A stretch of DNA of 64,000 nucleotides from contig NZ_CADEAR010000001.1 in NCBI RefSeq assembly GCF_902825325.1, positions 62,001 to 126,000 of the forward strand, given 5' to 3'. This stretch comes from Brucella tritici (GTDB taxonomy: Bacteria > Pseudomonadota > Alphaproteobacteria > Rhizobiales > Rhizobiaceae). Under the pieces are notes generated by a model. That model was not told the DNA's origin. It saw only the letters and a list, made by a program, of their open reading frames with translations, and searched no databases. The translations under genes and the position numbers were made by a program. Numbering within the stretch: the stretch's first letter is position 1; each line of letters begins with the position of its first letter. Below are positions 6,661-24,534 of this stretch, piece after piece.

Positions 6661-8649
6661 TTAGAACTGGAACTGTGTCGAGACGAGGAAAGTGCGTCCG
6701 CGACCAGAGCCATAGGTGCTGAGAGCAGGAGTATATTCCTTGTCAGTGATGTTCAGCACCTGAAGCGAAAGATCAACCGTGTCAGTGAACTTGTACTTCG
6801 CGAAGACGTCCACCAGCGTATAGGGATCGGTGTCGTTTCCTGTGATGCTTCTGCCACTCGAAACATGTTGAACGCGCAGACCGCTCTCAAGCTTGCGTTC
6901 GAAGAAGCGTGCACCAGCCGTAACTGTTACGACATCTTCAGGCAGATACTGGTTTGCCCCGAGGCCCGCCGTCTGTTCCGGGAGTTCGGAGGTGGAGTGC
7001 GTGTAAGCAATGCCACCAAAGGCGAAGCCGGCATCGTAACGGGCATCAAGTTCGAAGCCTTTCACATCGGAAATGCCATCCACATTGATGAACTGGCTGT
7101 TCGTGCTGGAGGCGGTGATGTAGTCCTCAACACGCATCATGTAGTAGTTGGCTTTGATGCGCAGGCCGTCTTCTGCTGTAAATATGCCGTCGCGTGCGAT
7201 ATTGACGCCGAACTCCCATCCGCGCTGCTTTTCAGGGCGTAGATCCGGATTGCCACGCAAACCTGTTGTACCCGCATGGGCCACGCCACCAAGGAAGGTT
7301 TCCTGCAAGGTTGGCGAACGCATGGAATGCGCATATGTAATATAAGGCTGCAGCCAGTCGGTCACGTTATAGGCAACTGTGACCTTGGGGCTGAGTTCGC
7401 CATCGCTGTTCGAAATGGAGCTGTCTTCGCTCTCAAGCTTGAAATAATCGTAGCGAAGGCCGGTGATGACCTGCAAGGCTTGATAGTTCCAGGTCGCTTC
7501 CGAGAAGACCGCGCTGCGATTGGAAGTGGCGTCTGTCGGGTTGACACCAGTAATGTTGCCACCAGCATTGTCGCGATTAATTTCAAAGCCGTTCTTCCAC
7601 GCGACAGCTACATCACCAAAGGTGAATCGTGACGTGTTTGAGGCGGTCATCCCTGTGGTGTCTGTTGAAATTTGACGCCCGACGTAGCTGCCATTGCCGC
7701 CCACCCAGTTCTGCAGCGTGCTGTTGTGGTAGAGGTTGACGTCGAGGTCGATGAGATCGTTGTCGGACGGGTTGTAGTTATATTGTGCGAAGAACGTGCG
7801 GTTCTGCAGGAACATATCGTAGATCGTATAGGTTCCCGGACGGTAGCCGTTGGCATATGTTCCGTAGTGGTTGTTGTAGAGGACACCGCCAAGCGTCAGC
7901 TTCTGGTCTTCACCAAGACCGAACTCAGCCTTGAACAGACCGGAGGTCAGTTCCTCGCCGGACTTCTCGACAGTCGCGCCGTCGCCGTTTTTGTAATCGC
8001 TGGAATCGTGACGGCTGATGGCCGCAACAATCCCGATGGAATTGACGCGGGCAGCACCTGCCAGCATTTCGGAGAAACCGGTGCCATTGCTGCCCCAGGA
8101 AGCGCGGCCGAGGACGCCCTTGTCCTTGCCATCCAGAATGACATCATCAACGCCGATCGTGCGGAAATTGACGCTGCCGGCAAGGCCGGTGCCGCCCTCG
8201 GTCGTCACGGCGCCGCGCGCCACATCGATTTCTGACAGCAGGTTCGGGTCAATATAGGCATAACCCTGCGCATCGTGCGCGGTGTTGCGATAGCTTTGCG
8301 GCACGCCGTCGATCATCATGTTGACGCGGCCGGAGCCTTCGAAACCACGAATATTGACCGCGACACCCGGATTGGACGCATTTTGCAAGGTGAACACGCC
8401 AGCCGTGCCACGCAACACATCATCGAGCTTCGCGCCACCGAAACGATTGATCTCTTCGCGGTCGACCCTACCGACCGGTGCCGCCTCTGTCGCCCGGCGA
8501 ATGGTGATCGTCTTCAACGCAACGCCAGCTTCTTCTTCAGAGGCTTTCTGTTCCTGCGCAAAGGCTTGTGACGTCATCGCCACAAGAATGACAGCAAGCC
8601 CCGTGCTCGCCAGAATTGAATGTTTGTGAACCCCACCAGTCGCCCGCAT
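6661..8649 (-). CDS. bhuA: TonB-dependent haem receptor
   Basis: This 662-residue outer-membrane receptor has a signal peptide ending A-F-A-Q, a TonB-box-like I-T-I-R-R segment, and a plug domain with R-G-F-E-G-S-G-R-V-N. The barrel contains the haem-receptor G-N-P-D-L-R-P-E-K box and ends in the aromatic Q-F-Q-F. It would import haem using TonB energy. The frame runs further upstream from a TTG, but ATG 8649 has an AAGGAA site 9 bases before it and gives a normal signal peptide. It is divergent from the hemP-hmuSTUV operon, with an IRO-like site between. Confidence 0.93.
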   Translation of the reverse strand: MRATGGVHKHSILASTGLAVILVAMTSQAFAQEQKASEEEAGVALKTITIRRATEAAPVGRVDREEINRFGGAKLDDVLRGTAGVFTLQNASNPGVAVNIRGFEGSGRVNMMIDGVPQSYRNTAHDAQGYAYIDPNLLSEIDVARGAVTTEGGTGLAGSVNFRTIGVDDVILDGKDKGVLGRASWGSNGTGFSEMLAGAARVNSIGIVAAISRHDSSDYKNGDGATVEKSGEELTSGLFKAEFGLGEDQKLTLGGVLYNNHYGTYANGYRPGTYTIYDMFLQNRTFFAQYNYNPSDNDLIDLDVNLYHNSTLQNWVGGNGSYVGRQISTDTTGMTASNTSRFTFGDVAVAWKNGFEINRDNAGGNITGVNPTDATSNRSAVFSEATWNYQALQVITGLRYDYFKLESEDSSISNSDGELSPKVTVAYNVTDWLQPYITYAHSMRSPTLQETFLGGVAHAGTTGLRGNPDLRPEKQRGWEFGVNIARDGIFTAEDGLRIKANYYMMRVEDYITASSTNSQFINVDGISDVKGFELDARYDAGFAFGGIAYTHSTSELPEQTAGLGANQYLPEDVVTVTAGARFFERKLESGLRVQHVSSGRSITGNDTDPYTLVDVFAKYKFTDTVDLSLQVLNITDKEYTPALSTYGSGRGRTFLVSTQFQF

Positions 8650-8850
8650 TTCCAATGTTTCCTTCATTAACCAGACGCGCTTCATCGACCCGACGGGTGA
8701 CGAAGAAACTAGAAAATTCAATTGTTTATGACTTCCCCCTCAAGAGAAGGCCGCGTGCTGGCTGGGAAGACGGTTTCTTCCGGGCTTGCGCTGAAAAAGC
8801 GAGATTTAAACTTGACTCGATTATTCCAGTAATGCAGTGATTAATAAACA

Positions 8851-8865
8851 TGACTGTTGATGTCA
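8851..8865. promoter_or_regulatory. RirA/IRO-type operator in the bhuA-hemP divergent region
   Basis: TGA-CTGTTGATG-TCA fits the iron-responsive operator pattern TGA-N9-TCA recognised by RirA in rhizobia. It sits 55 bp before the hemP start and about 200 bp before the bhuA start, inside the only region available for both promoters. Confidence 0.6.
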
Positions 8866-8919
8866 ACAAAACAAATTTGCTGTCATCACCGTGTGGAAAG
8901 TCGATGCTGAGGCGAGAAA

Positions 8920-9204
8920 ATGAACAGGCGAATCCATATCGACATGCAGGTGCGGTTACCGCGCGGACCCGTTTCCGACAGAACTGCAAATCGCATTCCT
9001 GAAAGCCAGCTCAGCGGCGATTCAACCGGGTCTGTCCCGGCTCAGATAAAACCTCGCTTCGGCGAGAATGCACTTGAGCCGCAACTGAAAACCTATGGCA
9101 GTCGCGAACTCTTCGACGGCTCCCGGGAAGTGGGCATAGAGCACGGCGGCTCGCTCTATCGCCTCAAGATCACCCGCCAAGGCAAGCTCATCCTAAACAA
9201 GTAG
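8920..9204 (+). CDS. hemP: Hemin uptake protein HemP/HmuP
   Basis: This 94-residue protein ends with the HemP signature (S-R-E-L-F-D-G near residue 62, then L-Y-R-L-K-I-T-R-Q-G-K-L-I-L-N-K). In rhizobia HmuP is a small activator of haem-uptake gene expression. The N-terminal half is less conserved and longer than usual, so a later start is possible, but GAGG lies just before this ATG. It heads the hmu operon, 11 bp before hmuS. Confidence 0.85.
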   Translation: MNRRIHIDMQVRLPRGPVSDRTANRIPESQLSGDSTGSVPAQIKPRFGENALEPQLKTYGSRELFDGSREVGIEHGGSLYRLKITRQGKLILNK

Positions 9205-9215
9205 GCAACCATCAG

Positions 9216-10292
9216 ATGACGACTCATTCCAAGCCCTCCCCAGAGCAGATTCTCAAGGCACGGGCTGATAATCCGAAAATGCGTGAACGCGATTTTGCGC
9301 AGAGCCTCGGTATATCAGAAGCCGATTTCGTAGCAGCGCATTGCGGACAAGATGCAACGGCACCGATTTCGGCGCGGCGTGTTCGCGCCGATGTCGAAAC
9401 GCTGTTGAATCGCATTGGGGCCGTCGGCGAAATCATGGCGCTGACGCGCAATGAGAGTGTTGTCCATGAGAAGATCGGGCCTTTTGAAAAGACGATCTGG
9501 GGGCCACATGCTTCGCTGGCACTCGGCAAGGAAATCGATCTTCGTATTTTCCCGAAGCATTGGGTTCACGGTTTTGCGGTTTCCAAGCAGGATGGCGAAG
9601 CAACGCGCCGCAGCCTGCAGTTCTTCGACGCCACGGGCGAGGCGGTCTTCAAGATTCATCTGCGTCCGGCTTCCAACGTTGAAGCCTACGAGGCGCTCGT
9701 CAACGATTTGCTGCTGGACGATCAGTCCCCAGTCATTGAAACCAGCGTTCTCGCGCCAAAAGGACCGAAGGTCGACGTATCGCTTCTCGATATCGACGCA
9801 TTCCGTGAACGTTGGGGCGCTCTCACCGATGTGCACCAGTTTGTCGGCTTGTTGAAGGATTTCGGCGTGGATCGCCATCAGGCTGTGCATCTTGCCGGTC
9901 ATGATTTTGCCTGGCGTGTCGATACGTCGTCGGTCGAGGCTATGATGAACCATGCTGTGCAGGAAAAGCTGCCGATCATGTGCTTTGTCGGCAGCCGTGG
10001 CTGCATCCAGATTCATACGGGTCCGATCCTCGAGATCAAGATGATGGGCCCATGGCTTAACGTACTGGATCCGACGTTCCATATGCACCTGCGCGTCGAT
10101 CACATTGCCGACGTCTGGGTGGTGCGCAAGCCTACGAAGGATGGTCATGTGACATCGCTGGAGGCCTATGATGCCAATGGCGAACTGATTGTTCAGTTCT
10201 TCGGCGAGCGTCATGAAGGCGAAGCGGAGCTGGCCGACTGGCGCATGATCGCGGAAAATCTTCCGCGTCTGCCGCAGTCGTCTGCGGCATGA
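9216..10292 (+). CDS. hmuS: Hemin-degrading/trafficking factor HmuS
   Basis: The 358-residue cytosolic protein has the duplicated HemS/HmuS domain. The first half carries A-L-T-R-N-E-S-V-V-H-E-K and I-D-L-R-I-F-P-K-H-W, and the second half has F-V-G-S-R-G-C-I-Q-I-H-T-G and L-R-V-D-H-I-A-D-V-W. The family binds haem delivered by HmuTUV and passes it on or helps to degrade it. It sits between hemP and hmuT with 10-11 bp gaps, so it belongs to one operon. Length is normal. Confidence 0.94.
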   Translation: MTTHSKPSPEQILKARADNPKMRERDFAQSLGISEADFVAAHCGQDATAPISARRVRADVETLLNRIGAVGEIMALTRNESVVHEKIGPFEKTIWGPHASLALGKEIDLRIFPKHWVHGFAVSKQDGEATRRSLQFFDATGEAVFKIHLRPASNVEAYEALVNDLLLDDQSPVIETSVLAPKGPKVDVSLLDIDAFRERWGALTDVHQFVGLLKDFGVDRHQAVHLAGHDFAWRVDTSSVEAMMNHAVQEKLPIMCFVGSRGCIQIHTGPILEIKMMGPWLNVLDPTFHMHLRVDHIADVWVVRKPTKDGHVTSLEAYDANGELIVQFFGERHEGEAELADWRMIAENLPRLPQSSAA

Positions 10293-10302
10293 GGTGACGG
10301 CA

Positions 10303-11196
10303 ATGTCGTTCATTTCCTTGCGCTTCAGGCGCGGAGCTGCTCTGGCTGCCGTGGCATTATCGCTGGCGGCTGGTGGTGCTGCAGGTGCCGAGACTGTCGA
10401 TCATTTCGGCGACACGTCGCGCATTGTTTCCGTCGGCGGCTCGCTGACGGAAATCGTCTACGCTCTCGGTGCGGAAAAGATGCTCGCCGCGCGTGACCAG
10501 ACGAGTATCTATCCCGATGCCGTAAAGAAGCTGCCGGATATCGGCTATATGCGCCAGCTTGCGCCCGAAGGCGTGCTCTCGGTCAATCCGACCGGCATTC
10601 TGCTCCTTGAGGGCAGCGGTCCGCAGGACACGCTGGATGTTTTGAAAAAAGCATCTGTGCCGATGATCGTCGTGCCGGAAACTTATACCGGCGAAGGCGT
10701 CGTCAAGAAAATCGAGATCGTGGGCAAAGCTCTCGGTCTGGAAGATAAGGCCAAGACGCTTGCTGCCGAAGTTTCGCGCGATATTGACGCCGCTGAGAAG
10801 GCCGCGTCCGGCCACAGTTCACGCAAGCGTGTGCTTTTCGTGCTGTCGGCTCCTGGCGGGCGCATGATGGCATCTGGCACAGGCACGGCGGCCAACGGCA
10901 TGATCGAGCTTGCCGGTGGCGAAAACGTCATCACCGAGTATCACGGATATAAGCAGCTGACCGACGAAGCTGTCGAGAAAGCCGCGCCCGACATGATCCT
11001 GATGATGGATACGGGTTCGGACGGGATGACGCCGGAATCGCTGTTGAAAAATCCCGTTATTGCCGCGACACCGGCGGGCCGCGACAAGAATGTCGTGTCG
11101 ATGGAAGCAACCTATCTGTTGGGATTTGGGCCGCGGACCGGCGCTGCCATTCGTGACCTGTCAGCAAAACTCTACGGCGCTTCCTCAGCGCAATAA
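10303..11196 (+). CDS. hmuT: Haem ABC transporter substrate-binding protein HmuT
   Basis: The 297-residue product has a signal peptide (A-A-G-G-A-A-G-A-E around residue 25) and the class III periplasmic binding fold. The fold shows R-I-V-S-V-G-G-S-L-T-E-I-V-Y-A-L-G at the start of the mature protein and a long central helix. It carries haem across the periplasm. A GTG three codons earlier is open, but the ATG at 10303 has a GAGGTG ribosome site 6 bases before it. A 12-bp stem-loop follows the stop. Confidence 0.94.
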   Translation: MSFISLRFRRGAALAAVALSLAAGGAAGAETVDHFGDTSRIVSVGGSLTEIVYALGAEKMLAARDQTSIYPDAVKKLPDIGYMRQLAPEGVLSVNPTGILLLEGSGPQDTLDVLKKASVPMIVVPETYTGEGVVKKIEIVGKALGLEDKAKTLAAEVSRDIDAAEKAASGHSSRKRVLFVLSAPGGRMMASGTGTAANGMIELAGGENVITEYHGYKQLTDEAVEKAAPDMILMMDTGSDGMTPESLLKNPVIAATPAGRDKNVVSMEATYLLGFGPRTGAAIRDLSAKLYGASSAQ

Positions 11197-11200
11197 CATG

Positions 11201-11237
11201 ATCAGGCTTGCACGTTTGAAGAACATGCAAGCCTGAT
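11201..11237 (+). other. Intra-operon stem-loop between hmuT and hmuU
   Basis: ATCAGGCTTGCA pairs perfectly with TGCAAGCCTGAT around a 13-base loop in the 58-bp hmuT-hmuU gap. It lacks a T-run. Such structures after binding-protein genes often protect the upstream mRNA or partly stop transcription. Confidence 0.72.
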
Positions 11238-11254
11238 TGTAAGGGATATTCGAA

Positions 11255-12394
11255 ATGACCAGCCAAGGTCGCGTAGCGCGCGAACAGCGCTTTGCAGCGC
11301 GTCATTCAGATAATGAAGCCACTACCTCCGAACGTGATGTCACGGGGGACCGGGCGGCTCGTGCACGGCTCACCATCCTATTGCTCGCCGTTGCTTTATG
11401 CATTGCGGCACTGTTCAGCCTGACAGCAGGTGCTTCGGATGCGTCCGTGCTTTCTGTGCTGCGCGCTCTGACCTCCTCCGGCGCAGCCGAAGGTGCGGAT
11501 GCATTTCGTCGCGATCATCTGATCATCATGGAAATCCGCCTGCCGCGTATCGTCATGGGCATGTTGATCGGGGCTGGGCTCGCCGTTTCCGGGGCCGTGA
11601 TGCAGGGCCTGTTTCGCAATCCGCTGGCCGATCCGGCGCTTGTCGGTGTGTCTGCCGGTGCCGGCCTTGGCGCAGTATCGATGATCGTTCTGGGTGGCAC
11701 TTTTCTTGCACCCGTTATTGCGATCCTCGGTGTCTACGCGTTGCCTCTGGCCGCATTTCTGGGCGGTCTTGCCAGTACTTTGCTGCTCTATCGTGTCGCG
11801 ACGCGTCGCGGACGCACATCTGTTGCAACCATGCTGCTTGCAGGTATTGCACTTGGTGCCCTGGCGGGCGCTGCGACCGGCGCGCTTATCTATCTGGCCG
11901 ATGACCGGCAGTTGCGGGATCTGACATTCTGGGGCCTCGGTTCGCTTGCTGGTTCTACCTGGGCAAAGATTGGCGCTGCGGGGCCGGTCATCGCCATCAT
12001 TCTGGTGGTTTCACCTTTGCTCGCCCGTGGTCTCAATGCACTGGCTTTGGGTGAGGCTGCTGCTGGTCATCTTGGCATTCAGGTGCAGCGCATCAAAAAC
12101 ATTGCTATCGTGACGGTGGCTGCTGCTACCGGCGCAACGGTGGCCGTTGCAGGCGGGATCGGCTTTATCGGCATTGTTGTGCCGCATATGCTGCGCCTCA
12201 GCATCGGGCCGGACCATCGTTATCTCCTGCCAGCGTCAGCTCTGTTGGGCGCTACGCTTCTGCTTCTGGCGGATGCGGTAAGTCGCACGATTGTGGCTCC
12301 GGCAGAATTGCCGATCGGCATCATCACCGCGCTTTTCGGCGCACCGTTCTTCCTCTGGATATTGCTGCGCCAGCGCGGCCTGCTTGATCTCTGA
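11255..12394 (+). CDS. hmuU: Haem ABC transporter permease HmuU
   Basis: This FecCD-family permease of 379 residues has about ten membrane helices. It contains the conserved R-L-P-R-I-V-M-G-M-L-I-G-A-G-L-A-V-S-G-A motif near residue 95 and the N-P-L-A-D-P-x-x-x-G-V-S-A-G-A segment. The G-F-I-G-I-V-V-P-H-M-L-R cytoplasmic loop near 307-318 contacts the ATPase. It forms the inner-membrane haem channel with HmuV. The first 35 residues are charged and unusually long before helix 1. The start ATG has AAGGGA about 9 bases upstream. Confidence 0.94.
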   Translation: MTSQGRVAREQRFAARHSDNEATTSERDVTGDRAARARLTILLLAVALCIAALFSLTAGASDASVLSVLRALTSSGAAEGADAFRRDHLIIMEIRLPRIVMGMLIGAGLAVSGAVMQGLFRNPLADPALVGVSAGAGLGAVSMIVLGGTFLAPVIAILGVYALPLAAFLGGLASTLLLYRVATRRGRTSVATMLLAGIALGALAGAATGALIYLADDRQLRDLTFWGLGSLAGSTWAKIGAAGPVIAIILVVSPLLARGLNALALGEAAAGHLGIQVQRIKNIAIVTVAAATGATVAVAGGIGFIGIVVPHMLRLSIGPDHRYLLPASALLGATLLLLADAVSRTIVAPAELPIGIITALFGAPFFLWILLRQRGLLDL

Positions 12395-12401
12395 GGCTAT
12401 C

Positions 12402-13205
12402 ATGATTGAAACAAAGGCATTGGGCGTAAGCCTGTCGGGCAAGACCATCATCAGTGACATCGCCTTTTCGGCTAAGCCGGGTGAGGTGACCGCCATCGTT
12501 GGGCCGAATGGTTCCGGGAAGACCACGCTGTTGCGCGCACTTTCCGGCGATATCGCTTACAAAGGAAACGCCTATCTGGATGGCCAGTCCTTCGCTGAAA
12601 TCAAGCCGTGGCAGATGGCGGCGCGCCGGGCAGTGCTTCCGCAGGCAAGCGCCTTGTCGTTTCCCTTCACGGTTCGCGAAATCGTAAAGATCGGGCTTAC
12701 CGGCGGCTATAGCGGCGTTTCTCGTGATGAAGAAAAACGTCTGCCCGATCTCGCCCTGCAAAAGGTTGATCTCGCTGGCTTCGGCGGGCGGCTTTATCAG
12801 GAGCTATCCGGTGGAGAACAACAGCGGGTACAGCTTGCCCGCGTTATTTGCCAGGTCTGGAAACCGGTCGTGGATGGGAAGGCGCGCTATCTCTTTCTGG
12901 ACGAGCCGATTTCAAGTCTCGATATCCGTCACCAGATCGTGGTGATGGAGATTGCGAAGGATTTTGCCGCAGCAGGCGGCGGGGTGATTGCCATCCTGCA
13001 TGATCTCAACCTGACTGCCATGTTTGCCGACCGTATCGCGGTCATGAACAGGGGCAAGCTCGACGCGATGGGCACGCCGCGCGAAGCATTGACCGACGAG
13101 CGGCTCGAACGTGTTTATGAATGCTCGTTGCGCGTGGGCGTTCCGCCGGAAAAGGGTGTTCCTTTCGTATTGCCGCAATCTGCGTATCGCGCAGCCGCAG
13201 AATAA
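12402..13205 (+). CDS. hmuV: Haem ABC transporter ATP-binding protein HmuV
   Basis: The 267-residue ATPase has Walker A G-P-N-G-S-G-K-T-T (about residues 34-42), the signature L-S-G-G-E-Q-Q-R, Walker B Y-L-F-L-D-E-P and a switch histidine in I-L-H-D-L-N. It powers haem import by HmuTU. ATG 12402 lies 7 bp after the hmuU stop with GAGG just before it. The longer frame upstream is only overlap with hmuU. A two-way terminator follows. Confidence 0.95.
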   Translation: MIETKALGVSLSGKTIISDIAFSAKPGEVTAIVGPNGSGKTTLLRALSGDIAYKGNAYLDGQSFAEIKPWQMAARRAVLPQASALSFPFTVREIVKIGLTGGYSGVSRDEEKRLPDLALQKVDLAGFGGRLYQELSGGEQQRVQLARVICQVWKPVVDGKARYLFLDEPISSLDIRHQIVVMEIAKDFAAAGGGVIAILHDLNLTAMFADRIAVMNRGKLDAMGTPREALTDERLERVYECSLRVGVPPEKGVPFVLPQSAYRAAAE

Positions 13206-13236
13206 AAAAGTCCGGCATAAAGCCGGACCTTTTCGT
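13203..13236. terminator. Bidirectional terminator between hmuV and rirA
   Basis: GTCCGGC pairs with GCCGGAC around a 5-base loop, with an A-run on the left and a T-run on the right. It can therefore end transcription of both convergent genes. Confidence 0.88.
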
Positions 13237-13257
13237 TTCTGGTCTTGCGGTGAACTA

Positions 13258-13719
13258 TCAGCTCGCTACGCGCTCTTCTTCCATTTCATCGAGACCAAGC
13301 AAGTGCCGCACATTCGGGCGCGCCTTGACGAGGTCTGCAATGCTGTACTTCATCAGCACGCCGAAAAAGGCATTGAGCGCTTCGCGGAGCGCTGAATTTA
13401 GCGCGCAGCTATCAACGAGCGGGCATTCGGTGGCATCATTTTCGAAGCACTCTGCCATGGCGAAGTTTTCTTCGGTCACACGCACGACGTCGAACAGCGA
13501 AATGTCTTTTGCGGCACGTCCGAGGCGCACGCCGCCATTGCGGCCGCGTACAGTTTCTACGAGTTTATGCTCAACCAGTGGCTGAAGAATCTTGAACAAA
13601 AACAGTTCAGAGACACCGTAGGCACGCGCAATTTCCGGAATGCGGCTGAGCTTGCCGTCATTGGCAGCGCAGTACATGAGCATACGAACGGCATAATTCG
13701 TCTGGCGGGTAAGACGCAT
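13258..13719 (-). CDS. rirA: Iron-responsive transcriptional regulator RirA (Rrf2 family)
   Basis: The 153-residue Rrf2 protein has an N-terminal winged helix (M-R-L-T-R-Q-T-N-Y-A-V-R-M-L-M-Y) and exactly the three RirA cluster cysteines C91, C99 and C105. RirA binds an Fe-S cluster and represses iron-uptake genes when iron is sufficient. The ATG at 13719 gives the family N-terminus and is preceded by AAAGGAA. The open frame upstream is not conserved in character. An Irr-like palindrome lies about 225 bp upstream, and the neighbouring hmu and bhu genes are expected targets. Confidence 0.96.
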   Translation of the reverse strand: MRLTRQTNYAVRMLMYCAANDGKLSRIPEIARAYGVSELFLFKILQPLVEHKLVETVRGRNGGVRLGRAAKDISLFDVVRVTEENFAMAECFENDATECPLVDSCALNSALREALNAFFGVLMKYSIADLVKARPNVRHLLGLDEMEEERVAS

Positions 13720-14060
13720 CACTGTTCCTTTCAACACGTCTCGGAGCGATTCCATGCCTCGATAGTGAGGACGATGATGCTCCAATCCTTGAGTTCGCAA
13801 TTCCTAACCGAAAGCGGCGTATTCCCTGTTTCGGTTTGTTTCGGAGTTGCTCCAAAATTCTGGTCTTGTCGCATTTTCGATCCAGAAAGGTTCAAGGCTC
13901 AATCGGATCATGCGCTAAAGCGGATATCTGTTTCTTAACCCACTTTAGAATCATTCTTAAAATATATGAAGTCTTTTCTCACCTTTAAAGGGGAAAAGTT
14001 GTTACCGGCATCAATTAACTGCGAGTTCCTCCCAGATCCGCTGCGACAGCCCATTTCGGC
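13720..14060. other. Intergenic region upstream of rirA
   Basis: No gene is seen in these 341 bp. The region holds the Irr-like palindrome at 13944-13961 and, by exclusion, the rirA promoter. The distance to the rirA start implies a long 5' leader if the palindrome overlaps the promoter. Confidence 0.55.
13944..13961. promoter_or_regulatory. Irr/ICE-type operator upstream of rirA
   Basis: TTTAGAAT-C-ATTCTTAAA is a near-perfect palindrome and shares the core TTAGAATCATTCT with the site upstream of bfd-bfr. The match to the ICE motif suggests Irr control of rirA, as known in related bacteria. Confidence 0.7.
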
Positions 14061-15322: not shown

Positions 15323-15412
15323 GGAGGGGTGGCCGAGCGGTTTAAGGCACCGGTCTTGAAAACCGGCGTGCAGGAGACTGTACCGTGGGTTCGAATCCCA
15401 CCCCCTCCGCCA
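15323..15412 (+). tRNA. tRNA-Ser (UGA)
   Basis: The 90-base gene folds as a class II tRNA. The acceptor GGAGGGG pairs with CCCCTCC, the anticodon stem CCGGT/ACCGG holds loop CTTGAAA (anticodon TGA at 15357-15359), a long variable arm is present, the T-loop is TTCGAAT, and an encoded CCA ends the gene. Its 3' part is the attachment site of the integrative element that follows; the gene itself remains intact. Confidence 0.97.
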
Positions 15413-15413
15413 T
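15348..15413 (+). repeat. attL: left 66-bp direct repeat (3' part of tRNA-Ser)
   Basis: These 66 bases, from the anticodon arm through CCA plus one T, are repeated without a change at 24469-24534. The repeat starts in the anticodon stem, where tyrosine integrases commonly cross over. Confidence 0.96.
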
Positions 15414-15738
15414 AACTTACTAAAATTATTATGCAAATTTAGTTGACAAAAAACGAGCTTATCAGGATCGGCCTGCAACAAATTTGTTTACAGCTGCAAC
15501 AATGACGCAACAATTTTCTTGTTGCAAACGCCGCTTCTGAAGACGCTATGCGAATCATGACAGTGAACGGCCTGTATGTGCCGATATGTCGAGTCTAAAA
15601 AGACTAATCTGAGACAACAATTATCAACACGCTAAATTGCAAATCGACATTTGGTGCAGCGAGGACAGCGAATAATATTTGTGGAATCGAAAATACCCCG
15701 GTAAATGAAATTTGGGCATAGTTATTGGGGAAGGTGTT
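15414..15738. other. Left non-coding end of the element
   Basis: This stretch has no gene. It holds four copies of TGCAACAA or a one-base variant (15474-15526) and must include the promoter of the DUF4747-like gene, perhaps using TTGACA at 15443-15448. Confidence 0.6.
15474..15526. repeat. Cluster of four TGCAACAA repeats near attL (candidate integrase arm sites)
   Basis: Copies are at 15474-15481, 15495-15502, 15506-15513 (CGCAACAA) and, inverted, 15519-15526. The same word occurs beside the integrase gene at the other end of the element. Confidence 0.65.
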
Positions 15739-16608
15739 ATGGGGCGCAAAGTAAAAATATCTGCGTCGGCGCTAAACGTTCGGTTACATCCTCATTCAGC
15801 GGACATCTATAAACGATGGATAAAGTCAATTTATTCGAAACGGTTAATCGCCCAAGTTTATGGAGACAGGTATGGGATGATTTCCAGCATTGACCGTTCG
15901 GGGGAAGCGAATAACATTGTAACTGGAGCCATTACTACATTCATTAAATTTGATGGCGACGGGAATTGGTTTAACGCTGCTGACATGGCTGAAGCCACAG
16001 AACAGGATATCTCCGAAATCCATATTCCCCAGAATCTGTTTCCCAATGCTGCGTCGTTTTATTTCTATTTTGATGTGCAAGAACACAAGATCTATTTTCA
16101 AACCTATTCAAAGGGCAAAACAATTACACCGGGGTCGGCTCTAAGGTTTTTTAGAGGTTTTGCCGAAAGGTCGGATATCGCTGATGAGTTCGGGGTGGCA
16201 AAGATAAACATTGTCCAAGACAAATATTCTCTTAAGGAAATGTTTTCTATAAAAAGAATTAAAGAAATAAACATTACAATCGCTAAGCCAAATACAGATA
16301 TATTTGATGATGATTTTGAAATTAATATCGAGAAACATTTGGAGCAAACCGGAAGCCGTGAGATTTCAGTTTCTTATAAGTCGGAGGGTAACGGGTCGAT
16401 CAAACCCGATGATGACATTAAGAAGATCAGCCAGGTCGCCCTTGAGAATGGAACCGTCGAGGTGGTGGGCAGAGATGAAAGGGGGGCTGTTCGTCTGAAT
16501 AGTGAAGACTTCCCGAAGGAGTTGCACGACCGTTACGATCCAGATGAACAAAGCGAGCGGTCGGCCTTTTTCGCTCTAATTCCGGCTCGCAGAAACGCGG
16601 GCGCTTGA
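15739..16608 (+). CDS. DUF4747 family-like protein, possible defence component
   Basis: The 289-residue soluble protein opens K-I-S-A-S-A-L-N-V-R-L-H-P-H-S and has a central S-F-Y-F-Y-F-D-V-Q-E-H-K-I-Y-F-Q-T-Y-S-K-G-K segment (about residues 118-140). It also contains I-T-I-A-K-P-N-T-D-I-F-D-D-D-F-E. I recognise this as the DUF4747 pattern, a family without an assigned activity; no catalytic motif is evident. ATG 15739 follows a GGGGAAGG site. The gene is AT-rich compared with the chromosome and ends 2 bp before a membrane-protein gene, so the two very likely form one unit. The architecture recalls RexA-RexB, but sequence similarity to RexA was not established. Confidence 0.72.
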   Translation: MGRKVKISASALNVRLHPHSADIYKRWIKSIYSKRLIAQVYGDRYGMISSIDRSGEANNIVTGAITTFIKFDGDGNWFNAADMAEATEQDISEIHIPQNLFPNAASFYFYFDVQEHKIYFQTYSKGKTITPGSALRFFRGFAERSDIADEFGVAKINIVQDKYSLKEMFSIKRIKEINITIAKPNTDIFDDDFEINIEKHLEQTGSREISVSYKSEGNGSIKPDDDIKKISQVALENGTVEVVGRDERGAVRLNSEDFPKELHDRYDPDEQSERSAFFALIPARRNAGA

Positions 16609-16610
16609 TC

Positions 16611-17183
16611 ATGATTAAGTGGTTTAAGCCATGGGTGACCTTGTTCAAGTGGCTGAATCGATATCGTCGTGCCTACGGTGGCTTCCGAGCTATGTTCGCA
16701 TCGCCTTTTTTTGGGGTCGCGATAATAATCACAGGATTAAGCTATTCGTTGTGGATTGAGCCTAAATGGATTGAAAAAGCAGAAAATCTTATTCCAAGCC
16801 TTCTTGGATTCAGTCTCGGTACATACGCAATAATCTTCAGCATAGTGGGTGGGCGAATAAAAGGCGCTTTAAGGCAAGTGCAAGCTCCACACGGCGTGAG
16901 CTATCTAGAGGCAATCAACTCTATTTTTTTTCACTTTATATTTGTTCAAGTCTGCTGTTTAGCTTGGGCTTTTTTGTACCAAGGAACTTGGTTAATCGAT
17001 TTTGTTGTATTGATAGAACCGAGTCTCCCGTTCGCACGGAATGGATTTATTTACGTCAGTTTGATGGGTTCATTTATGGGCTGCTTCTTGCTGGTTTATT
17101 CTATTCTCTTGATGGTAGCAGCGGCTATGGCCGTTTATCGATTGGCAATTCTCAAAGACCCATTGGAGTATGAGAAACGATAG
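16611..17183 (+). CDS. Four-helix membrane protein paired with the DUF4747-like protein
   Basis: The 190-residue product has four hydrophobic segments at roughly residues 36-52, 62-83, 104-136 and 145-178. The N-terminus is basic (K-W-F-K-P-W, R-Y-R-R) and the C-terminal tail is short and charged. No enzymatic motif is seen. ATG 16611 lies 2 bp after the upstream stop and has no good ribosome site of its own, which suggests translational coupling. The segment L-L-G-F-S-L-G-T-Y-A-I-I-F-S-I with glycines could line a pore. I do not recognise the family; a membrane effector role is inference. Confidence 0.7.
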   Translation: MIKWFKPWVTLFKWLNRYRRAYGGFRAMFASPFFGVAIIITGLSYSLWIEPKWIEKAENLIPSLLGFSLGTYAIIFSIVGGRIKGALRQVQAPHGVSYLEAINSIFFHFIFVQVCCLAWAFLYQGTWLIDFVVLIEPSLPFARNGFIYVSLMGSFMGCFLLVYSILLMVAAAMAVYRLAILKDPLEYEKR

Positions 17184-18119: not shown

Positions 18120-19328
18120 TCATCGAATTTTCGGACTGTTCGGCTCGAAACTCTGTTGCTCAGGATTGAGCAGCCGATCCCGCTGACGGCGCAATTGATC
18201 GCGTTCGCTGACCAGGGCCTGCATTGACTGGGTGGTATTGGAAAGTTTTGTTTCCGCAGCCATGCGGCGGCGGGTTTCATTCTGCAAATGCTTCTGGGTA
18301 TGGGCTGCGCGTTCGCGCTCCCGGTCAATGAGGGGCTGCACTTCTTTCCAAAGGGCCTTGTGAAGTGCGGATATGCGCAACGCGTCCCAAAAACTGCGAA
18401 GCCTGCTGGCGAGGGAGCGGACCTTCCGCATTTCGGCGTTGGCACTGGCAACAAGCCTATCGGATTGATGCCGCGCATCCTGCACAATGGTTTTTGCATG
18501 CTGCCGGGCATGGGCCATGGTCTTCTGTGCTACCATTTCGCGCTGCTGACGATTTTGGTCGGCTGCTTGCGCGGCCTTCATCGCTGTTGCTGCCATAGCG
18601 TTCGCCTGCTGCACGCTTTTGGCTGCAGCCTTTTCTGCCTTCCATGCGGCCCGGGAAAGGCGACGTCGCGCCGGACCAAGGCGGGTCAGTCCATGCACCA
18701 GGCCGACATTCGTTGAATATGAATCCTGCCATGCACGCATTGCTTCCACATAGGCTTTATCACCCATGGCATTGGCAGCCTTCTTTTCCTGCCCGTTTTC
18801 AATTGCAGCTTCCACCACTGCTTTCTTGGCTACCTTACCGGGGTGCAACCGATCAGCGTGGCCGCAGGAATGCAGACCATATGCGTGCAGATGCACATGC
18901 GCCTCGTCCACGTGCATGATGACGGTTTCCAGCGTGCCACCGCGCGCTTCCAGATCATGCCGCAGCCATTTCACCGAATCCCGTGCCCACGCTTCCACGG
19001 CAGCCTTGACGTTAGGATCATTGCGACATTCCTCGGGTGTCGCTGGATGTGACAACACGCATGTGAACAGCGAGCAGGTGTCTTTGCGCACGGCGCGCGT
19101 CTTGCCATTCGCCAGCGATTCCCGGGCCTGCTCGATCATTGTATCGTGACGGCGCATGAGTTCATCAAAACCGCAGCCATAGACGGTCACGGGATTTTTA
19201 GGATTTTCAACGTGCAGCGAGGCTTCCGGTGAGCGCCGCGCTTCGGAAATAATTTCCGCAATAGTGAGCTTTCCGCTGCGGCCACCTGTTCGGGAATAAG
19301 TTTCGATATGAGCGAACTGGAAGCCCAT
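18120..19328 (-). CDS. MobV/Pre-like relaxase
   Basis: The 402-residue protein starts F-Q-F-A-H-I-E-T-Y-S-R and has the metal-binding triad H-V-D-E-A-H-V-H-L-H at residues 139-148. This matches the H-x-D-E-x-x-x-H-x-H motif of MobV (Pre/Mob) relaxases. After about residue 230 it is a long alanine-, lysine- and glutamine-rich coiled coil. Relaxases nick one strand at oriT to start mobilization. It starts 5 bp after the stop of a small upstream gene and has no ribosome site of its own, so it is probably coupled. oriT should lie nearby, likely upstream at 19574-19750. Confidence 0.75.
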   Translation of the reverse strand: MGFQFAHIETYSRTGGRSGKLTIAEIISEARRSPEASLHVENPKNPVTVYGCGFDELMRRHDTMIEQARESLANGKTRAVRKDTCSLFTCVLSHPATPEECRNDPNVKAAVEAWARDSVKWLRHDLEARGGTLETVIMHVDEAHVHLHAYGLHSCGHADRLHPGKVAKKAVVEAAIENGQEKKAANAMGDKAYVEAMRAWQDSYSTNVGLVHGLTRLGPARRRLSRAAWKAEKAAAKSVQQANAMAATAMKAAQAADQNRQQREMVAQKTMAHARQHAKTIVQDARHQSDRLVASANAEMRKVRSLASRLRSFWDALRISALHKALWKEVQPLIDRERERAAHTQKHLQNETRRRMAAETKLSNTTQSMQALVSERDQLRRQRDRLLNPEQQSFEPNSPKIR

Positions 19329-19333
19329 TTACG

Positions 19334-19573
19334 TTACAGTTTCGATCCAACGCTGGCTGCAAGCTGGCGTTCGGTTTCCTGAACCAATTCCCAAACCGCC
19401 TGAAGGTCGGCGCGGATTTGCATAAGTCTGGAATCCAGTTCTCTGCCGTTTGGCCAGCCGCGCTGCTGTAATTGTTCAAAGCCACGCGCAGCCGAGCGCA
19501 GCTCATCCATGAGGTGGTTATAGCGGGCATGATTGAGGGGAAATTGGTCGGTTGGAATTTCAAGCAGATTCAT
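19334..19573 (-). CDS. Small helical protein upstream of the relaxase gene
   Basis: The 79-residue product is mostly amphipathic helix (for example R-Y-N-H-L-M-D-E-L and I-R-A-D-L-Q-A-V-W-E-L-V). ATG 19573 has an AGGAG site 8 bases before it. I recognise no family. Its tight link to the relaxase gene suggests an accessory mobilization role, such as a relaxosome component, but this is inference. Confidence 0.6.
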   Translation of the reverse strand: MNLLEIPTDQFPLNHARYNHLMDELRSAARGFEQLQQRGWPNGRELDSRLMQIRADLQAVWELVQETERQLAASVGSKL

Positions 19574-19730
19574 GGTCCAGACTCCTGTCATAACGGTTAG
19601 ACAAGAATCGTCACCCATCGGCGCGAATGAAACAAGGGGAAGATATAGTGACCGACTACATCTATTCGCTTCACGCCTTCAGCTGCTCATAGATATCGGC
19701 TCTCCGAGGGCCTCGGCAGGGGCCGTTTTT

Positions 19731-19750
19731 GTAACGGAATTATCCGTTAC
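19731..19750. other. Perfect 8-bp stem-loop overlapping the Rep-like stop codon
   Basis: GTAACGGA pairs with TCCGTTAC around ATTA. It lies between the Rep-like gene and the mobilization genes, where an oriT or a single-strand origin could be expected. There is no T-run in a useful position. Confidence 0.5.
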
Positions 19751-21494
19751 ATTTCCATTGCATCGCGCCAGATATGTAATCATTCCGCATCTGTTCAACA
19801 AATGTTGAGACAGGCAGATCATATGGGATCAGGTCGTCCAGATCATCGTCCGTGAGTTCTTCGAAACGCTCGCGATAAATGCCGTATTCTTCCAGCAGGA
19901 GAAGATCATCCTTACGGCGCTGTTCCCATGCTTCTTGCTGTTCCCGGCCTTTCTCAAGCAGCTTATGGGGATCAGCGACGTCGATTGACCATTCATGGAA
20001 CGTCTTCGGAGCGTGTTCCTGCAGGATTTGCGTTACACGGTCACGGACGACATCCAAATCGTGTTCCGGCCTGATAAAGCCGAGCAGCTTGAACAGCTTC
20101 TGACGTCGCTCATGAGAGGTGCGCACAAATTCTGAAATGAACTGTCTGGGAATTATCGTAAGAGTGTCAAGTTTAGACGACCGGACGCCTGCGTCGTCCA
20201 GGTCTTCACACTCCACGCCTTGTTCGGCAAGCAGCTTCATATGGAAGGCGCGACGCCCATTGATGGCTTCCAGACCATCCCTGCCGTTCCTAGTCATCGG
20301 ATAGCTGCTGAAATTGCTCACCACGACGAAAGGCTCGGCCAAGAGCATGGCTCGCGACTGGGGAAGCGTTTTGCAGAGGATTTGATTTTCGATTTCTTCT
20401 TTCTCGTTGCCGCGCTCATATCGCGCAGCCATGACACGACGCTGCTGACGTTCGGCTTCTTCGGCGTCCGCCAGAATGTCGGCCTGAATCTCTTCCGCCG
20501 ATCCCGGTACAGGCTTGCGCTTTGAGACCTGACAACGGACAAGCGACTTGGCCTTGCTGTCAAAACGGACCTTCTGACCGTTATCCTTGAGTTTCATGCG
20601 CCATTCACGGAAAAGGCCCAGAGGGCGGACCATCTGCTTCTTATGCAGGGTTTCTGCAATGAATGCGGTGCTCGTGCCGTCAAGCCCCGCAATCTCGTTG
20701 TACTTACAGACGTACTTGATAATTTCCTTGGTGTCCTTGACGCGTCCTGCATCGTGCAGCATCTGACCGTCGAAATGGCTTCGGGTCGTATCGAGCCATT
20801 TTGACCAGCCTTGCGGGCCGAATGCTTTTCGTGGCGCAGACACAATGTTGGCATGCAGATTGATGGAACGATCTTCGTCCACCGTGAATTCAATCGAGCA
20901 TAAAATCACATCGATTTCGGCATTCGTGCTGATTGCGAAGTAGCGGCCCAGTTGCTTGTTAAAGGCCGCAAGGCGCTCGGGGAACTGATCGAGATGAAAT
21001 CGAGGTCCTGACGTCACAACCATATAACGGGCATAGCGGCGAATTTTTGGATTCTCTTTCAGGAACAGGTCAAATTGCTGGAGCAACGGCTGCCGATTGC
21101 GCTGGGCGACTTCAGGAATGATGTTGACGTTGCGATATTTAGACAGGCCGAAAATGGCACCGGAAATCAGGCCGACCATGGAAATGGTGTTTTCGCCTGA
21201 CAGGTACGGATTGAAGCCGGATTTCTCCAGCTTATAGGCGATGCGTTCGGATTGCTTGGCAATCTGGGCGTCGGCCAGTAACCGTTCCACGAAATCAATA
21301 CCCGCGAGCCTGTTGAGCGCATTGTTGTGCAGCACCTCGTCATGGGTGCGCACAAGAACATTGTCGTTGGAGACGTCGGGCGAACAAGCAGTAACTGAAT
21401 TCGCGAGACCAGACGTGGGTTTGTCAATATTTTTGGTTAGGGGAGTAGAAAAGCCCTGTTTGCTGAATACGGGGGTATTCAGCGCCGCGATCAC
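19740..21494 (-). CDS. Rolling-circle replication initiator (Rep)-like protein
   Basis: The 584-residue protein has a middle region with the order expected for Rep_1-type HUH endonucleases: a strand with R-Y-M-V-V-T-S-G-P (about 156-164), a degenerate metal motif L-H-A-N-I-V (213-218), and a helix K-E-I-I-K-Y-V-C-K-Y (256-265). Tyrosines Y261 and Y265 there could be catalytic. The metal motif lacks the second histidine of a classical H-x-H, which is odd. The long C-terminus is charged and unlike known domains. The frame opens with GTG and no good ribosome site. It could also be a transposase-like HUH protein; I am only moderately sure. Confidence 0.55.
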   Translation of the reverse strand: MIAALNTPVFSKQGFSTPLTKNIDKPTSGLANSVTACSPDVSNDNVLVRTHDEVLHNNALNRLAGIDFVERLLADAQIAKQSERIAYKLEKSGFNPYLSGENTISMVGLISGAIFGLSKYRNVNIIPEVAQRNRQPLLQQFDLFLKENPKIRRYARYMVVTSGPRFHLDQFPERLAAFNKQLGRYFAISTNAEIDVILCSIEFTVDEDRSINLHANIVSAPRKAFGPQGWSKWLDTTRSHFDGQMLHDAGRVKDTKEIIKYVCKYNEIAGLDGTSTAFIAETLHKKQMVRPLGLFREWRMKLKDNGQKVRFDSKAKSLVRCQVSKRKPVPGSAEEIQADILADAEEAERQQRRVMAARYERGNEKEEIENQILCKTLPQSRAMLLAEPFVVVSNFSSYPMTRNGRDGLEAINGRRAFHMKLLAEQGVECEDLDDAGVRSSKLDTLTIIPRQFISEFVRTSHERRQKLFKLLGFIRPEHDLDVVRDRVTQILQEHAPKTFHEWSIDVADPHKLLEKGREQQEAWEQRRKDDLLLLEEYGIYRERFEELTDDDLDDLIPYDLPVSTFVEQMRNDYISGAMQWKCNG

Positions 21495-21967: not shown

Positions 21968-22921
21968 ATGAAATTTGATCTGAGAAGGCGCGTAGCGGAG
22001 CTGCTGTCCTCTAATCCGGGGAAGCGGTATAAAGCGCGCGATATCGCAATCTGGATCACAGAGACATATCCAGAGGCTTCTGCGGCGAAAATGAAGAAGA
22101 GCGCATCTCTGGAGAATCACTCGCAGCTTTTGAACCAGATTGTCGCTGAAATCGGCGCTAACAGGCCGGGCTGGCAGCGAAATATGCCTCAATTGCGCAC
22201 GACTGAAGGCGTTCGGCCCCGCCAATATTATTGGACAGAGAAGACCGAGAAGCAGGAAGTCGAGGAGGTAGAGGCCGGGGGTATTGAACAGGTTGAAGTA
22301 GACATCGACATCTTGGCAAAAAACGATACACCGAAACTAGTCGAGAAAATAACTCCGAGGCGGAGCGAACACGATCTGTACCCGATGTTAATTGATTTCA
22401 TTGAGGCTGAACATAGCGTACGAGGCTATAGGATTGATGAGAAAAAGTCCTCGAATGCACATGGCTCCGGGGGCAACAAATGGCTCTTTCCAGATGTTGT
22501 CGGAATGGAAAACCTGACGACGGGGCTTCACTCAGAAGTAGTGACAGCAGTCAGGGAAAGCCGGGATCGACAACTACGGCTCTGGTCGTTTGAAGTTAAG
22601 CTCCTGATTAACAGGTCGAACGCCCGAGAGACATACTTTCAAGCGGTTTCTAATTCATCATGGGCAAATTTCGGCTACTTGGTTGCTGCTGATTTTGAAG
22701 GGTCTGAAACTCTTAAGGAATTGCGAATCCTGTACGCTATGCATGGGATTGGACTCATACGGCTGGATCAAGATAATCCCGTTGAAAGTGAAATCCTCGT
22801 TCCCGCACGCGAAAAGCTAGATATTGAATGGCCGATGTGTAGCCGTCTCGCCGTCGAGAACAGAGATTTTCGGGACTTCACTACGAAGGTCCGACAGTTT
22901 TTTCAAACGGGAGATATGTAA
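21968..22921 (+). CDS. HrgA-like protein with PD-(D/E)XK nuclease-type C-terminus
   Basis: The 317-residue protein begins with a winged-helix-like domain (about 1-90; K-R-Y-K-A-R-D-I-A-I-W-I), followed by a glutamate-rich linker. The C-terminal domain has E134, P175-D176, E209-V-K211 and Q225, the spacing of a PD-(D/E)XK fold. This resembles HrgA, known as a gene replacing a restriction enzyme gene in Helicobacter. No methyltransferase is nearby, so it is not an ordinary type II restriction pair. It may act on foreign DNA, but that is inference from fold and island context. Confidence 0.68.
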   Translation: MKFDLRRRVAELLSSNPGKRYKARDIAIWITETYPEASAAKMKKSASLENHSQLLNQIVAEIGANRPGWQRNMPQLRTTEGVRPRQYYWTEKTEKQEVEEVEAGGIEQVEVDIDILAKNDTPKLVEKITPRRSEHDLYPMLIDFIEAEHSVRGYRIDEKKSSNAHGSGGNKWLFPDVVGMENLTTGLHSEVVTAVRESRDRQLRLWSFEVKLLINRSNARETYFQAVSNSSWANFGYLVAADFEGSETLKELRILYAMHGIGLIRLDQDNPVESEILVPAREKLDIEWPMCSRLAVENRDFRDFTTKVRQFFQTGDM

Positions 22922-23279: not shown

Positions 23280-24386
23280 TCAACCCGCTGCCGATGTCTC
23301 CGTCCCAGCAACCGATTCCGTTGAAGGAAATAGTCGCGCTCGCTGTTCCGCTGGCGTTGGATTCAGATACCGCATCAGGACGGCAACCGTTTTGTGACCT
23401 GATTGGCGCATGAGGGTTTTCAGGTCCACGCCTCGCGATGCCATCAATGACAGGGCCTCGTGGCGTAGATCATGGATGCGTAGGTCGGGACATTTGGCGG
23501 TTACACGAATGTCATTCCGCCAGACGTTCTTTGCTGTCCATTCCGAAAACCTAAAAACAAGGCTGTCATCAGACTCCCGATCAATGTGTTTCATAAGCTC
23601 TTCATAGGAGCGGTCGGAAAGGGCGACGTAACGACGGCTGCCGTTCTTACTATCAGGGATTACGACAAAATTTTCCTGTTCCCGCAGCCATCCGCATCGA
23701 AGGGACATGGCTTCGCCCAAGCGCATGCCTGTGTCAAGCAGCAGGGGGAAGAGAACCTTCCACTGGCGACCAACAGGCCCTTCAATCGCGGCAATGGCCT
23801 CATTGATGGCTGTTTCTTCTCCTGGACGTAATCTGCGCTCGCGATGACCATTTGGTTGCGGAATACCCCGCTTACGCCTTCTCAGGCTGGCAATCGGATT
23901 TGCGACGTCAACTGACTTCTCATGAATCAACCATTCAAAGACTGCGCTGATCGTATTCAAATTGTTTCTGATGGTGGAAGCGCTACGGCCTTCGTCTTCG
24001 CGGCCGTCGCGGAAATCCGCAAAATCAGGAACTGACAATTCGCGCAGCTTCTTCTTCGCGAAATTCTGACGCGCCAGCATATTGAGCATCGCGGCTTCTT
24101 GAGACGCTCCTTTCTTTTCTGGTGTTACCTCATCACGGTAGGTTTCTATCGCATCTTTAAACTGCTTGTCAGGCCAGCCCAGCGGGCCAAACTGTTTTGG
24201 AGTCAAGCGAGGGTCTTTCCAGGTGCCAAGGCGCATAGCTGCTTCTGTTGACTCAAGCCACAGGCGAGCATCAGACTTCTTGGTGAAGGTCTGATTGATC
24301 GATCTGGCCTTGGCAGGTCCCTGAAAAGTATCAGGAAGGCGCGCTGTCGCGGTCCATCGTCCATTACGCTTTACAAGGCTTGCCAT
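23280..24386 (-). CDS. Tyrosine-family site-specific integrase
   Basis: The 368-residue protein shows all catalytic positions of the family: R222 (D-T-G-M-R-L-G-E), K247 (S-K-N-G-S-R-R), H305-x-x-R308 (I-H-D-L-R-H-E), H331 (S-G-H-K-T) and Y340 (M-R-Y-L-N-P). The N-terminus has a phage-integrase SAM-like domain. It lies 83 bp from attR and would integrate and excise the element at tRNA-Ser(UGA). ATG 24386 was preferred over a TTG nine codons earlier. Two TGCAACA words lie just upstream of the start and may serve integrase binding or autoregulation. Confidence 0.95.
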   Translation of the reverse strand: MASLVKRNGRWTATARLPDTFQGPAKARSINQTFTKKSDARLWLESTEAAMRLGTWKDPRLTPKQFGPLGWPDKQFKDAIETYRDEVTPEKKGASQEAAMLNMLARQNFAKKKLRELSVPDFADFRDGREDEGRSASTIRNNLNTISAVFEWLIHEKSVDVANPIASLRRRKRGIPQPNGHRERRLRPGEETAINEAIAAIEGPVGRQWKVLFPLLLDTGMRLGEAMSLRCGWLREQENFVVIPDSKNGSRRYVALSDRSYEELMKHIDRESDDSLVFRFSEWTAKNVWRNDIRVTAKCPDLRIHDLRHEALSLMASRGVDLKTLMRQSGHKTVAVLMRYLNPTPAEQRARLFPSTESVAGTETSAAG

Positions 24387-24405
24387 CGCTGTTTTTACCC
24401 ACGTT

Positions 24406-24423
24406 TGCAACAATTATGCAACA
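24406..24423. repeat. Two TGCAACA repeats next to attR (candidate arm sites)
   Basis: TGCAACAA at 24406-24413 and TGCAACA at 24417-24423 repeat the word clustered near attL. They overlap the integrase promoter area. Confidence 0.6.
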
Positions 24424-24468: not shown

Positions 24469-24534
24469 CACCGGTCTTGAAAACCGGCGTGCAGGAGACT
24501 GTACCGTGGGTTCGAATCCCACCCCCTCCGCCAT
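24469..24534 (+). repeat. attR: right 66-bp direct repeat (tRNA-Ser 3' fragment)
   Basis: The repeat is identical to 15348-15413. It lacks the first 25 bases of the tRNA, so it is not a functional tRNA gene but the displaced chromosomal 3' end. Confidence 0.96.

What the first reader, a model, noticed from the sequence alone, without database searches (positions are those of the whole stretch)
15739..17183. Translationally coupled DUF4747-like protein plus four-helix membrane protein as a candidate two-gene phage-defence system
Two adjacent genes, 2 bp apart, encode a soluble 289-residue protein of an uncharacterised family and a 190-residue protein with four membrane helices. They sit as cargo at one end of a tRNA-integrated element. 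A cytosolic sensor plus a small membrane effector is the layout of RexA-RexB abortive infection and other membrane-disrupting systems. The pairing, the AT-rich composition and the island position are seen; a defence role is inference.
Basis: partly seen in the sequence, partly recalled or inferred. Interest (0 to 1): 0.88.

Follow-up and report, generated by a model that had tools for sequence, protein, structure and literature searches.

The report
RexAB-like phage-defence gene pair
A mobile DNA element in this bacterium carries two tightly linked genes, a soluble protein folded like the phage-lambda sensor RexA and a small membrane protein, that look like a suicide-style defence against viruses; it is a real and widely spread pair, but of a kind already recognised.

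Summary
Window 15739-16608 (+) encodes a true DUF4747 protein (PF15931, 163 bits, cut-off 27); two bases later, 16611-17183 (+) encodes a 190-residue membrane protein with four predicted helices. They are end cargo of a 9.1-kb element bounded by an exact 66-bp tRNA-Ser repeat. The pairing is strict in all that was searched: 32 of 32 genome loci found with the membrane protein have DUF4747 directly upstream, and 11 of 11 genomes found with DUF4747 have the membrane protein downstream. The two proteins diverge in parallel (r = 0.91), and the pair rides on unrelated elements, once in an E. coli P4-like satellite exactly between psu and int, a published defence hotspot. The predicted DUF4747 fold ranks lambda RexA first of 350,542 PDB chains, then RdgC, though superposition is loose. 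No sequence similarity to RexA or to the proven CarolAnn/Sbash proteins was found, and the membrane protein matches RexB only in layout. Best reading: a RexAB-type abortive-infection cassette, a DNA-clamp-like sensor that triggers a four-helix membrane effector. Defence is inferred, not shown. A 2026 paper already lists 'DUF4747/CarolAnn' among immune operons, so this is a new member of a known kind.

The parts
15739..16608 (+). DUF4747 (PF15931) soluble protein, 289 aa; predicted RexA/RdgC-like fold; proposed infection sensor
   Evidence: Pfam E 1.1e-47; PHROG 10040 E 1.4e-77, function unknown; AF2 pLDDT 90.3, pTM 0.85; Foldseek top PDB hit 8twq lambda RexA E 4.3e-7, prob 1.00
16611..17183 (+). 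Four-helix membrane protein, 190 aa; proposed effector
   Evidence: PHROG 20580 E 1.7e-20, function unknown; AF2 pLDDT 92.5; hydropathy and charge bias; 133 relatives at E 0.001
15727..15734 (+). Purine-rich Shine-Dalgarno-like stretch GGGGAAGG before the DUF4747 start
   Evidence: read in sequence
16609..16610 (+). 2-nt gap between the two genes
   Evidence: sequence
15323..15412 (+). tRNA-Ser (TGA), integration target
   Evidence: ARAGORN
15348..15413 (+). attL: 66-bp repeat overlapping the tRNA 3' part
   Evidence: exact repeat
24469..24534 (+). attR: exact copy of the 66-bp repeat
   Evidence: exact repeat
23280..24413 (-). Tyrosine integrase of the carrying element
   Evidence: PF00589 E 7.3e-19; PHROG integrase E 3.1e-51
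19740..21494 (-). 584-aa replication-protein-like ORF of the element (name from recalled motifs only)
   Evidence: no Pfam, PHROG or NCBIfam hit; 23% identity relative in L049
18120..19328 (-). 402-aa relaxase-like ORF (HxDE..HxHxH-type stretch, recalled motif)
   Evidence: sequence; no family over cut-off; 33% identity relative in L049

Best explanation
A two-gene abortive-infection cassette that works like lambda RexA-RexB. The DUF4747 protein is a soluble sensor with the two-domain RexA/RdgC fold, probably a dimer that clamps DNA or a phage DNA-protein complex; on infection it switches on the four-helix membrane protein, most likely through that protein's positively charged N-terminus and central cytosolic loop. 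The membrane protein then damages the inner membrane and stops growth before phage is released. Shown here: the pairing, parallel divergence, predicted fold of the sensor, predicted topology, mobile cargo position. Inferred: dimer and DNA binding, trigger, activation, membrane damage, defence.
For: Pairing from both sides: 32 of 32 genome-contig loci and 10 of 10 viral-contig loci (some the same genomes) found with the membrane profile have DUF4747 upstream; 11 of 11 genomes with PF15931 (4 of 199, 7 of 398, 2 of 385 searched, own genome shared) have the partner, one weakly (L012). In one draw of 398 genomes the membrane profile hit 6, all among the 7 with DUF4747. Distance matrices of 46 pairs correlate at 0.91; 0 of 2000 shuffles reach it, maximum 0.29. 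RexA is the top PDB fold match, RdgC next. The cassette moves alone: 40 of 40 related loci lack the window's integrase in the stretch held, 39 of 40 lack every other gene of the element outside the pair. E. coli: 19 of 5426 genomes; 7 of 19 contexts read, all on islands, one a P4-like element with the pair between psu and integrase, a site with tested anti-phage systems (PMC9122126, passages). Strong PADLOC matches (Septu, HEC-05, PDC-S02, RmrA) among 284 of 295 neighbour ORFs; best control match among 136 ORFs E 4.8e-54. RexAB-type pairs CarolAnn, Sbash and P. putida RexABpp are reported defences.
Confidence: 0.7

Rival explanations
1. Butters-type wiring: the soluble protein is the antiviral agent and the membrane protein only anchors or restrains it until infection.
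For: In Butters, gp30 alone blocks two phages and gp31 attenuates it (PMC7542560, passages). Strict pairing and parallel divergence fit a restraining anchor equally well.
Against: In CarolAnn, Sbash and RexABpp both genes are needed and the membrane protein is held to be the effector. The DUF4747 protein matches no recognised catalytic family.
Confidence: 0.12
2. An addiction or maintenance module of the mobile element, toxin-antitoxin in style, with phage defence absent or secondary.
For: On mobile or accessory DNA in every annotated context read, also on two 11-kb Acinetobacter plasmids directly after toxin-antitoxin genes.
Against: The larger soluble protein with a RexA-like fold is unlike an antitoxin (recalled sizes); the P4 psu-int position favours defence.
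Confidence: 0.1
3. A regulator of the carrying element, as RexA biases lambda's lytic switch, with the membrane protein tuning it.
For: RexA binds DNA and shifts the lambda switch independently of RexB (PMC11077077 abstract).
Against: The pair sits on elements sharing almost no other genes with the window's, and in the 9 annotated contexts read no gene annotated as a phage repressor is directly upstream.
Confidence: 0.05
4. A housekeeping pair, or a chance neighbour pair.
For: RdgC, the second fold match, is a housekeeping protein (recalled), but it is not known with a membrane partner (recalled).
Against: Sporadic (4 of 199 genomes in the family, 7 of 398 in the phylum), low GC, on a mobile element, strict pairing.
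Confidence: 0.03

Closest known systems
Lambda RexA-RexB (PF15969, PF15968)
   Same: Soluble gene followed by a four-helix membrane gene; RexA is the best solved fold match to the DUF4747 model; RexB shows four hydrophobic segments like the window protein
   Different: Separate Pfam families; no profile similarity of either protein; not beside a cI repressor here; longer membrane protein (190 against 144 aa)
Gordonia phage CarolAnn gp44/gp43 and Mycobacterium phage Sbash gp30/gp31 (reported defence)
   Same: Soluble plus four-helix membrane gene pair on mobile DNA; the papers note a weak DUF4747 match
   Different: Soluble protein 370-372 aa; CarolAnn proteins have no Pfam hit at E 10; no profile similarity to the window proteins found
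DUF4747/CarolAnn operons behind capK-capS (PMC13373217, passages)
   Same: Named there as an immune operon with DUF4747, 17 of 443 capK loci
   Different: No gene annotated as capK or capS beside the pair in the 9 annotated contexts read; here the pair is the first gene after the tRNA, 326 bp away
Pseudomonas putida RexABpp PP_5643-5644 (PMC12894663)
   Same: RexA-fold DNA-binding protein plus four-helix membrane effector; defence and membrane damage reported (abstract, passages and one section)
   Different: Whether PP_5643 is itself a DUF4747 protein was not tested here; the paper is not among the five that hold the term
RdgC
   Same: Second solved fold match, Foldseek prob 0.98; ring dimer on DNA (PMC11077077 passages)
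   Different: Housekeeping recombination protein without a membrane partner (recalled)

Membership tests
PF15931 (DUF4747) two-gene cassette | Sensor matches PF15931 over its cut-off | tested here: met
   163.1 bits, cut-off 27
PF15931 (DUF4747) two-gene cassette | Membrane partner immediately downstream on the same strand, conserved across relatives | tested here: met
   32 of 32 loci and 11 of 11 genomes
Lambda RexAB proper | Sensor belongs to PF15969 or is detectably related in sequence | tested here: not met
   Only PF15931 hit; hhalign 0.4% probability against 29 RexA sequences
Lambda RexAB proper | RexA fold | tested here: met
Lambda RexAB proper | Membrane protein belongs to PF15968 or is related in sequence | tested here: not met
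   No hit; hhalign 0.1% against only 3 RexB sequences
Lambda RexAB proper | RexB-like fold of the membrane protein | tested here: inconclusive
   Helical bundles only among matches
RexAB-type (works like) | Four transmembrane helices, termini inside | tested here: met
   Prediction only; 33 of 46 pairs, window included, give four segments at the same threshold, the rest 2, 3 or 5
RexAB-type (works like) | Sensor dimerises and binds DNA without sequence preference | not testable with these tools
   needs purified protein
RexAB-type (works like) | Excludes phage; both genes needed; membrane damage | not testable with these tools
   needs bench work
CarolAnn/Sbash family | Detectable sequence relation to gp44/gp30 | tested here: not met
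   hhalign 0.1% against only 3 sequences; hmmsearch E above 1

The most novel reading that the evidence does not exclude
DUF4747 plus its membrane partner is a main bacterial branch of a single, wide superfamily of DNA-clamp-triggered membrane killers. RexA, CarolAnn gp44, P. putida RexA and DUF4747 would all be RdgC-fold clamps that have diverged beyond sequence recognition, each with its own four-helix effector. The branch spreads as free-standing cargo of satellites, plasmids and small integrative elements rather than as part of a prophage switch, so its ancestral job would be defence.
Probability: 0.45. Interest if true: 0.6.

Novelty: new member of a known kind. Interest (0 to 1): 0.42.

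Why it matters
What RexAB is for and how it senses infection has stayed open for decades (recalled). A 2026 paper counts only five described RexAB-like systems (PMC12894663, passage). A strictly paired, sequence-distinct family with a RexA-like fold, found from rhizobia to E. coli satellites, offers many natural variants away from a prophage switch, so the defence role can be tested apart from lysogeny control.

Tried and rejected

Defence-island test: tallies are per family, not per locus; only the first 25 families are shown; many of the 249 families of the second batch are probably the same few ATPases hit by related models; the 136-ORF control comes from the window's own genome and is unmatched. 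So I claim no statistic. 11 of 295 neighbour ORFs were not scanned (all 7 of L044 and 4 of L043), and ORFs under 90 or over 900 aa were left out. Mobile markers near relatives are not universal: Phage_integrase in 3 of 144 ORFs of one batch, and not among the 25 families shown for the other 140.

Promoter-like sites: 2 found, shuffles 3.7 on average; terminator-like: 2 against 1.7. The element's other ORFs gave no family except the integrase.

Considered and dropped: holin (no lysis gene recognised in the element; RexA-like partner); housekeeping pair (sporadic).

Full report
What is there. The window holds a true DUF4747 gene at 15739-16608 and, after two bases, a 190-codon gene at 16611-17183, both on the + strand. 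The first matches PF15931 at 163 bits against a cut-off of 27. The second has no named family but matches a viral cluster of unknown function (PHROG 20580, E 1.7e-20), as the first does (PHROG 10040, E 1.4e-77). NCBIfam at E 0.01 and PADLOC at E 1 gave nothing for either. Hydropathy gives four segments and the charge bias puts both ends and the central loop inside.

The carrier. A 66-bp exact repeat of the tRNA-Ser 3' end lies at 15348-15413 and 24469-24534, with a tyrosine integrase next to the right copy. Between them lie a relaxase-like and a replication-protein-like ORF (names from recalled motifs; no family hit) and a 317-aa ORF, so this looks like a small integrative mobilisable element rather than a prophage. 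Of 30 genus members searched with the left flank, 10 gave loci, one of them the window. These loci hold only about 0.8-1.5 kb beyond the tRNA. In the other 9 no part of the element was found there except 111 bp in one, and in 5 of 9 the window's right flank follows within about 1 kb. The pair is the end cargo, 326 bp from the tRNA, at GC 0.430 against 0.560 outside the element.

The pairing. Starting from the membrane protein, 32 of 32 loci in named genomes and 10 of 10 in viral contigs have DUF4747 directly upstream on the same strand. Starting from DUF4747, 11 of 11 genomes have the partner (4 of 199 family genomes, 7 of 398 phylum genomes, 2 of 385 class genomes, own genome shared; partner). 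In one draw of 398 genomes the membrane profile hit 6 genomes, all among the 7 with DUF4747 (chance about 1e-12 if genomes were independent); the seventh has a weak partner. Three of three plasmids also hold both, one of them apparently the same locus as the class genome's. Hosts run from rhizobia to Acinetobacter, Pseudoalteromonas, Klebsiella and, weakly, Pedobacter (L044: E 3.7e-5 and 3.7e-9). Across 46 distinct pairs the two distance matrices correlate at 0.91, with 0 of 2000 shuffles reaching it. Shuffling ignores relatedness, so this shows inheritance as a unit and is compatible with contact, without proving it.

The pair travels alone. Of 40 related loci, none has the window's integrase in the stretch held, and one (L049) has distant relatives of the relaxase and replication ORFs. 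In E. coli 19 of 5426 genomes hold a relative; I read 7 of 19 contexts. One is an island with an integrase at tRNA-Asn. Five carry ProQ- and PerC-type genes upstream (four of the five also DUF4222, two an annotated primase), a set that I recall from phage satellites; all five share one membrane-protein accession and four share the DUF4747 accession too, so they are not independent. In these six the pair seems to be the last gene of the island, but I did not map the boundaries. The seventh, NCTC10973, is a P4-like satellite at ssrA with the pair exactly between psu and integrase. Rousset and colleagues describe that slot as a reservoir of antiviral systems and tested several (PMC9122126, passages).

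Neighbours. Of 295 ORFs within 5 kb of the 32 named loci, 284 were scanned (L044 not, L043 in part). PADLOC gave strong matches to Septu (PtuA E 1.6e-237, 2 members; PtuB, 2 members), HEC-05, PDC-S02 and RmrA, and weaker ones to type IIG restriction. A control of 136 ORFs from the window's genome gave 12 families, best E 4.8e-54 (mad3, 8 members), which I take to be generic ABC-type, DrmC and similar matches. Small numbers and an unmatched control make this suggestive only.

Mechanism. By analogy with CarolAnn, Sbash and RexABpp, where defence is reported (passages of PMC6426606 and PMC6426596, passages and one section of PMC12894663), the sensor meets a phage product or DNA intermediate and activates the membrane protein, which harms the membrane and halts growth. 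In Sbash, changes in the central cytosolic loop of the membrane protein inactivate defence; the window protein has a positively charged loop in the same place (79-97). RexABpp let dyes in without measurable depolarisation, so the exact injury is open. Invariant residues that deserve mutation are H116, N185 and G238 in the sensor and F67, F106 and Q113 in the membrane protein.

Novelty. Five held papers mention DUF4747 (passages of all five seen); one, from 2026, already counts the 'DUF4747/CarolAnn prophage system' among immune operons. No experimental test of a sequence-confirmed PF15931 pair appeared in the passages I saw; whether P. putida RexABpp is one was not tested. So this is a new member of a known kind, with a firmer fold link and pairing count than I saw in those passages.

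Noticed in passing
window 21968-22921 (+): 317-aa ORF in the same element with a D...ExK-like stretch near its middle (recalled motif), perhaps a nuclease; no Pfam, PADLOC, PHROG or NCBIfam family and no convincing solved-structure match (best E 0.47). A possible second defence gene.
   Followed up: partly
window 18120-21494 (-): Relaxase-like, small and replication-protein-like ORFs without any family hit over cut-off; only L049 of 40 loci has distant relatives. The element may be a little-known type of integrative mobilisable element.
   Followed up: partly
window 6661-13800: From reading the ORFs only: TonB-dependent receptor, haem-degrading-type protein, binding protein, permease, ATPase and an Rrf2-type regulator, a likely haem or iron uptake cluster beside the element.
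   Followed up: no
L090 7818-9316: E. coli NCTC10973: the pair sits between psu and integrase of a P4-like satellite at ssrA.
   Followed up: yes
L078 5161-7515; L079 5130-7675: On two 11-kb Acinetobacter plasmids the pair lies directly after a toxin-antitoxin pair (NadS-RelE type, opposite strand; BrnT-BrnA).
   Followed up: no
L012 662-2169: Most divergent pair (profile E 4e-9 and 9e-6), hinting that the family extends beyond the PF15931 model's easy reach.
   Followed up: partly
PMC11181664, Table 1 passage: A DUF4747 gene and the next locus tag (606 bp, hypothetical) are strain-specific genes in a Salmonella Welikade isolate, probably another copy of the pair.
   Followed up: no
G600:C4, G606:C56 and L101: Second partial copies of the tRNA-Ser 3' end about 13.5 and 18.6 kb from the gene in two genus relatives, and a tRNA match cut short in L101, suggesting that other elements use the same site.
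   Followed up: no
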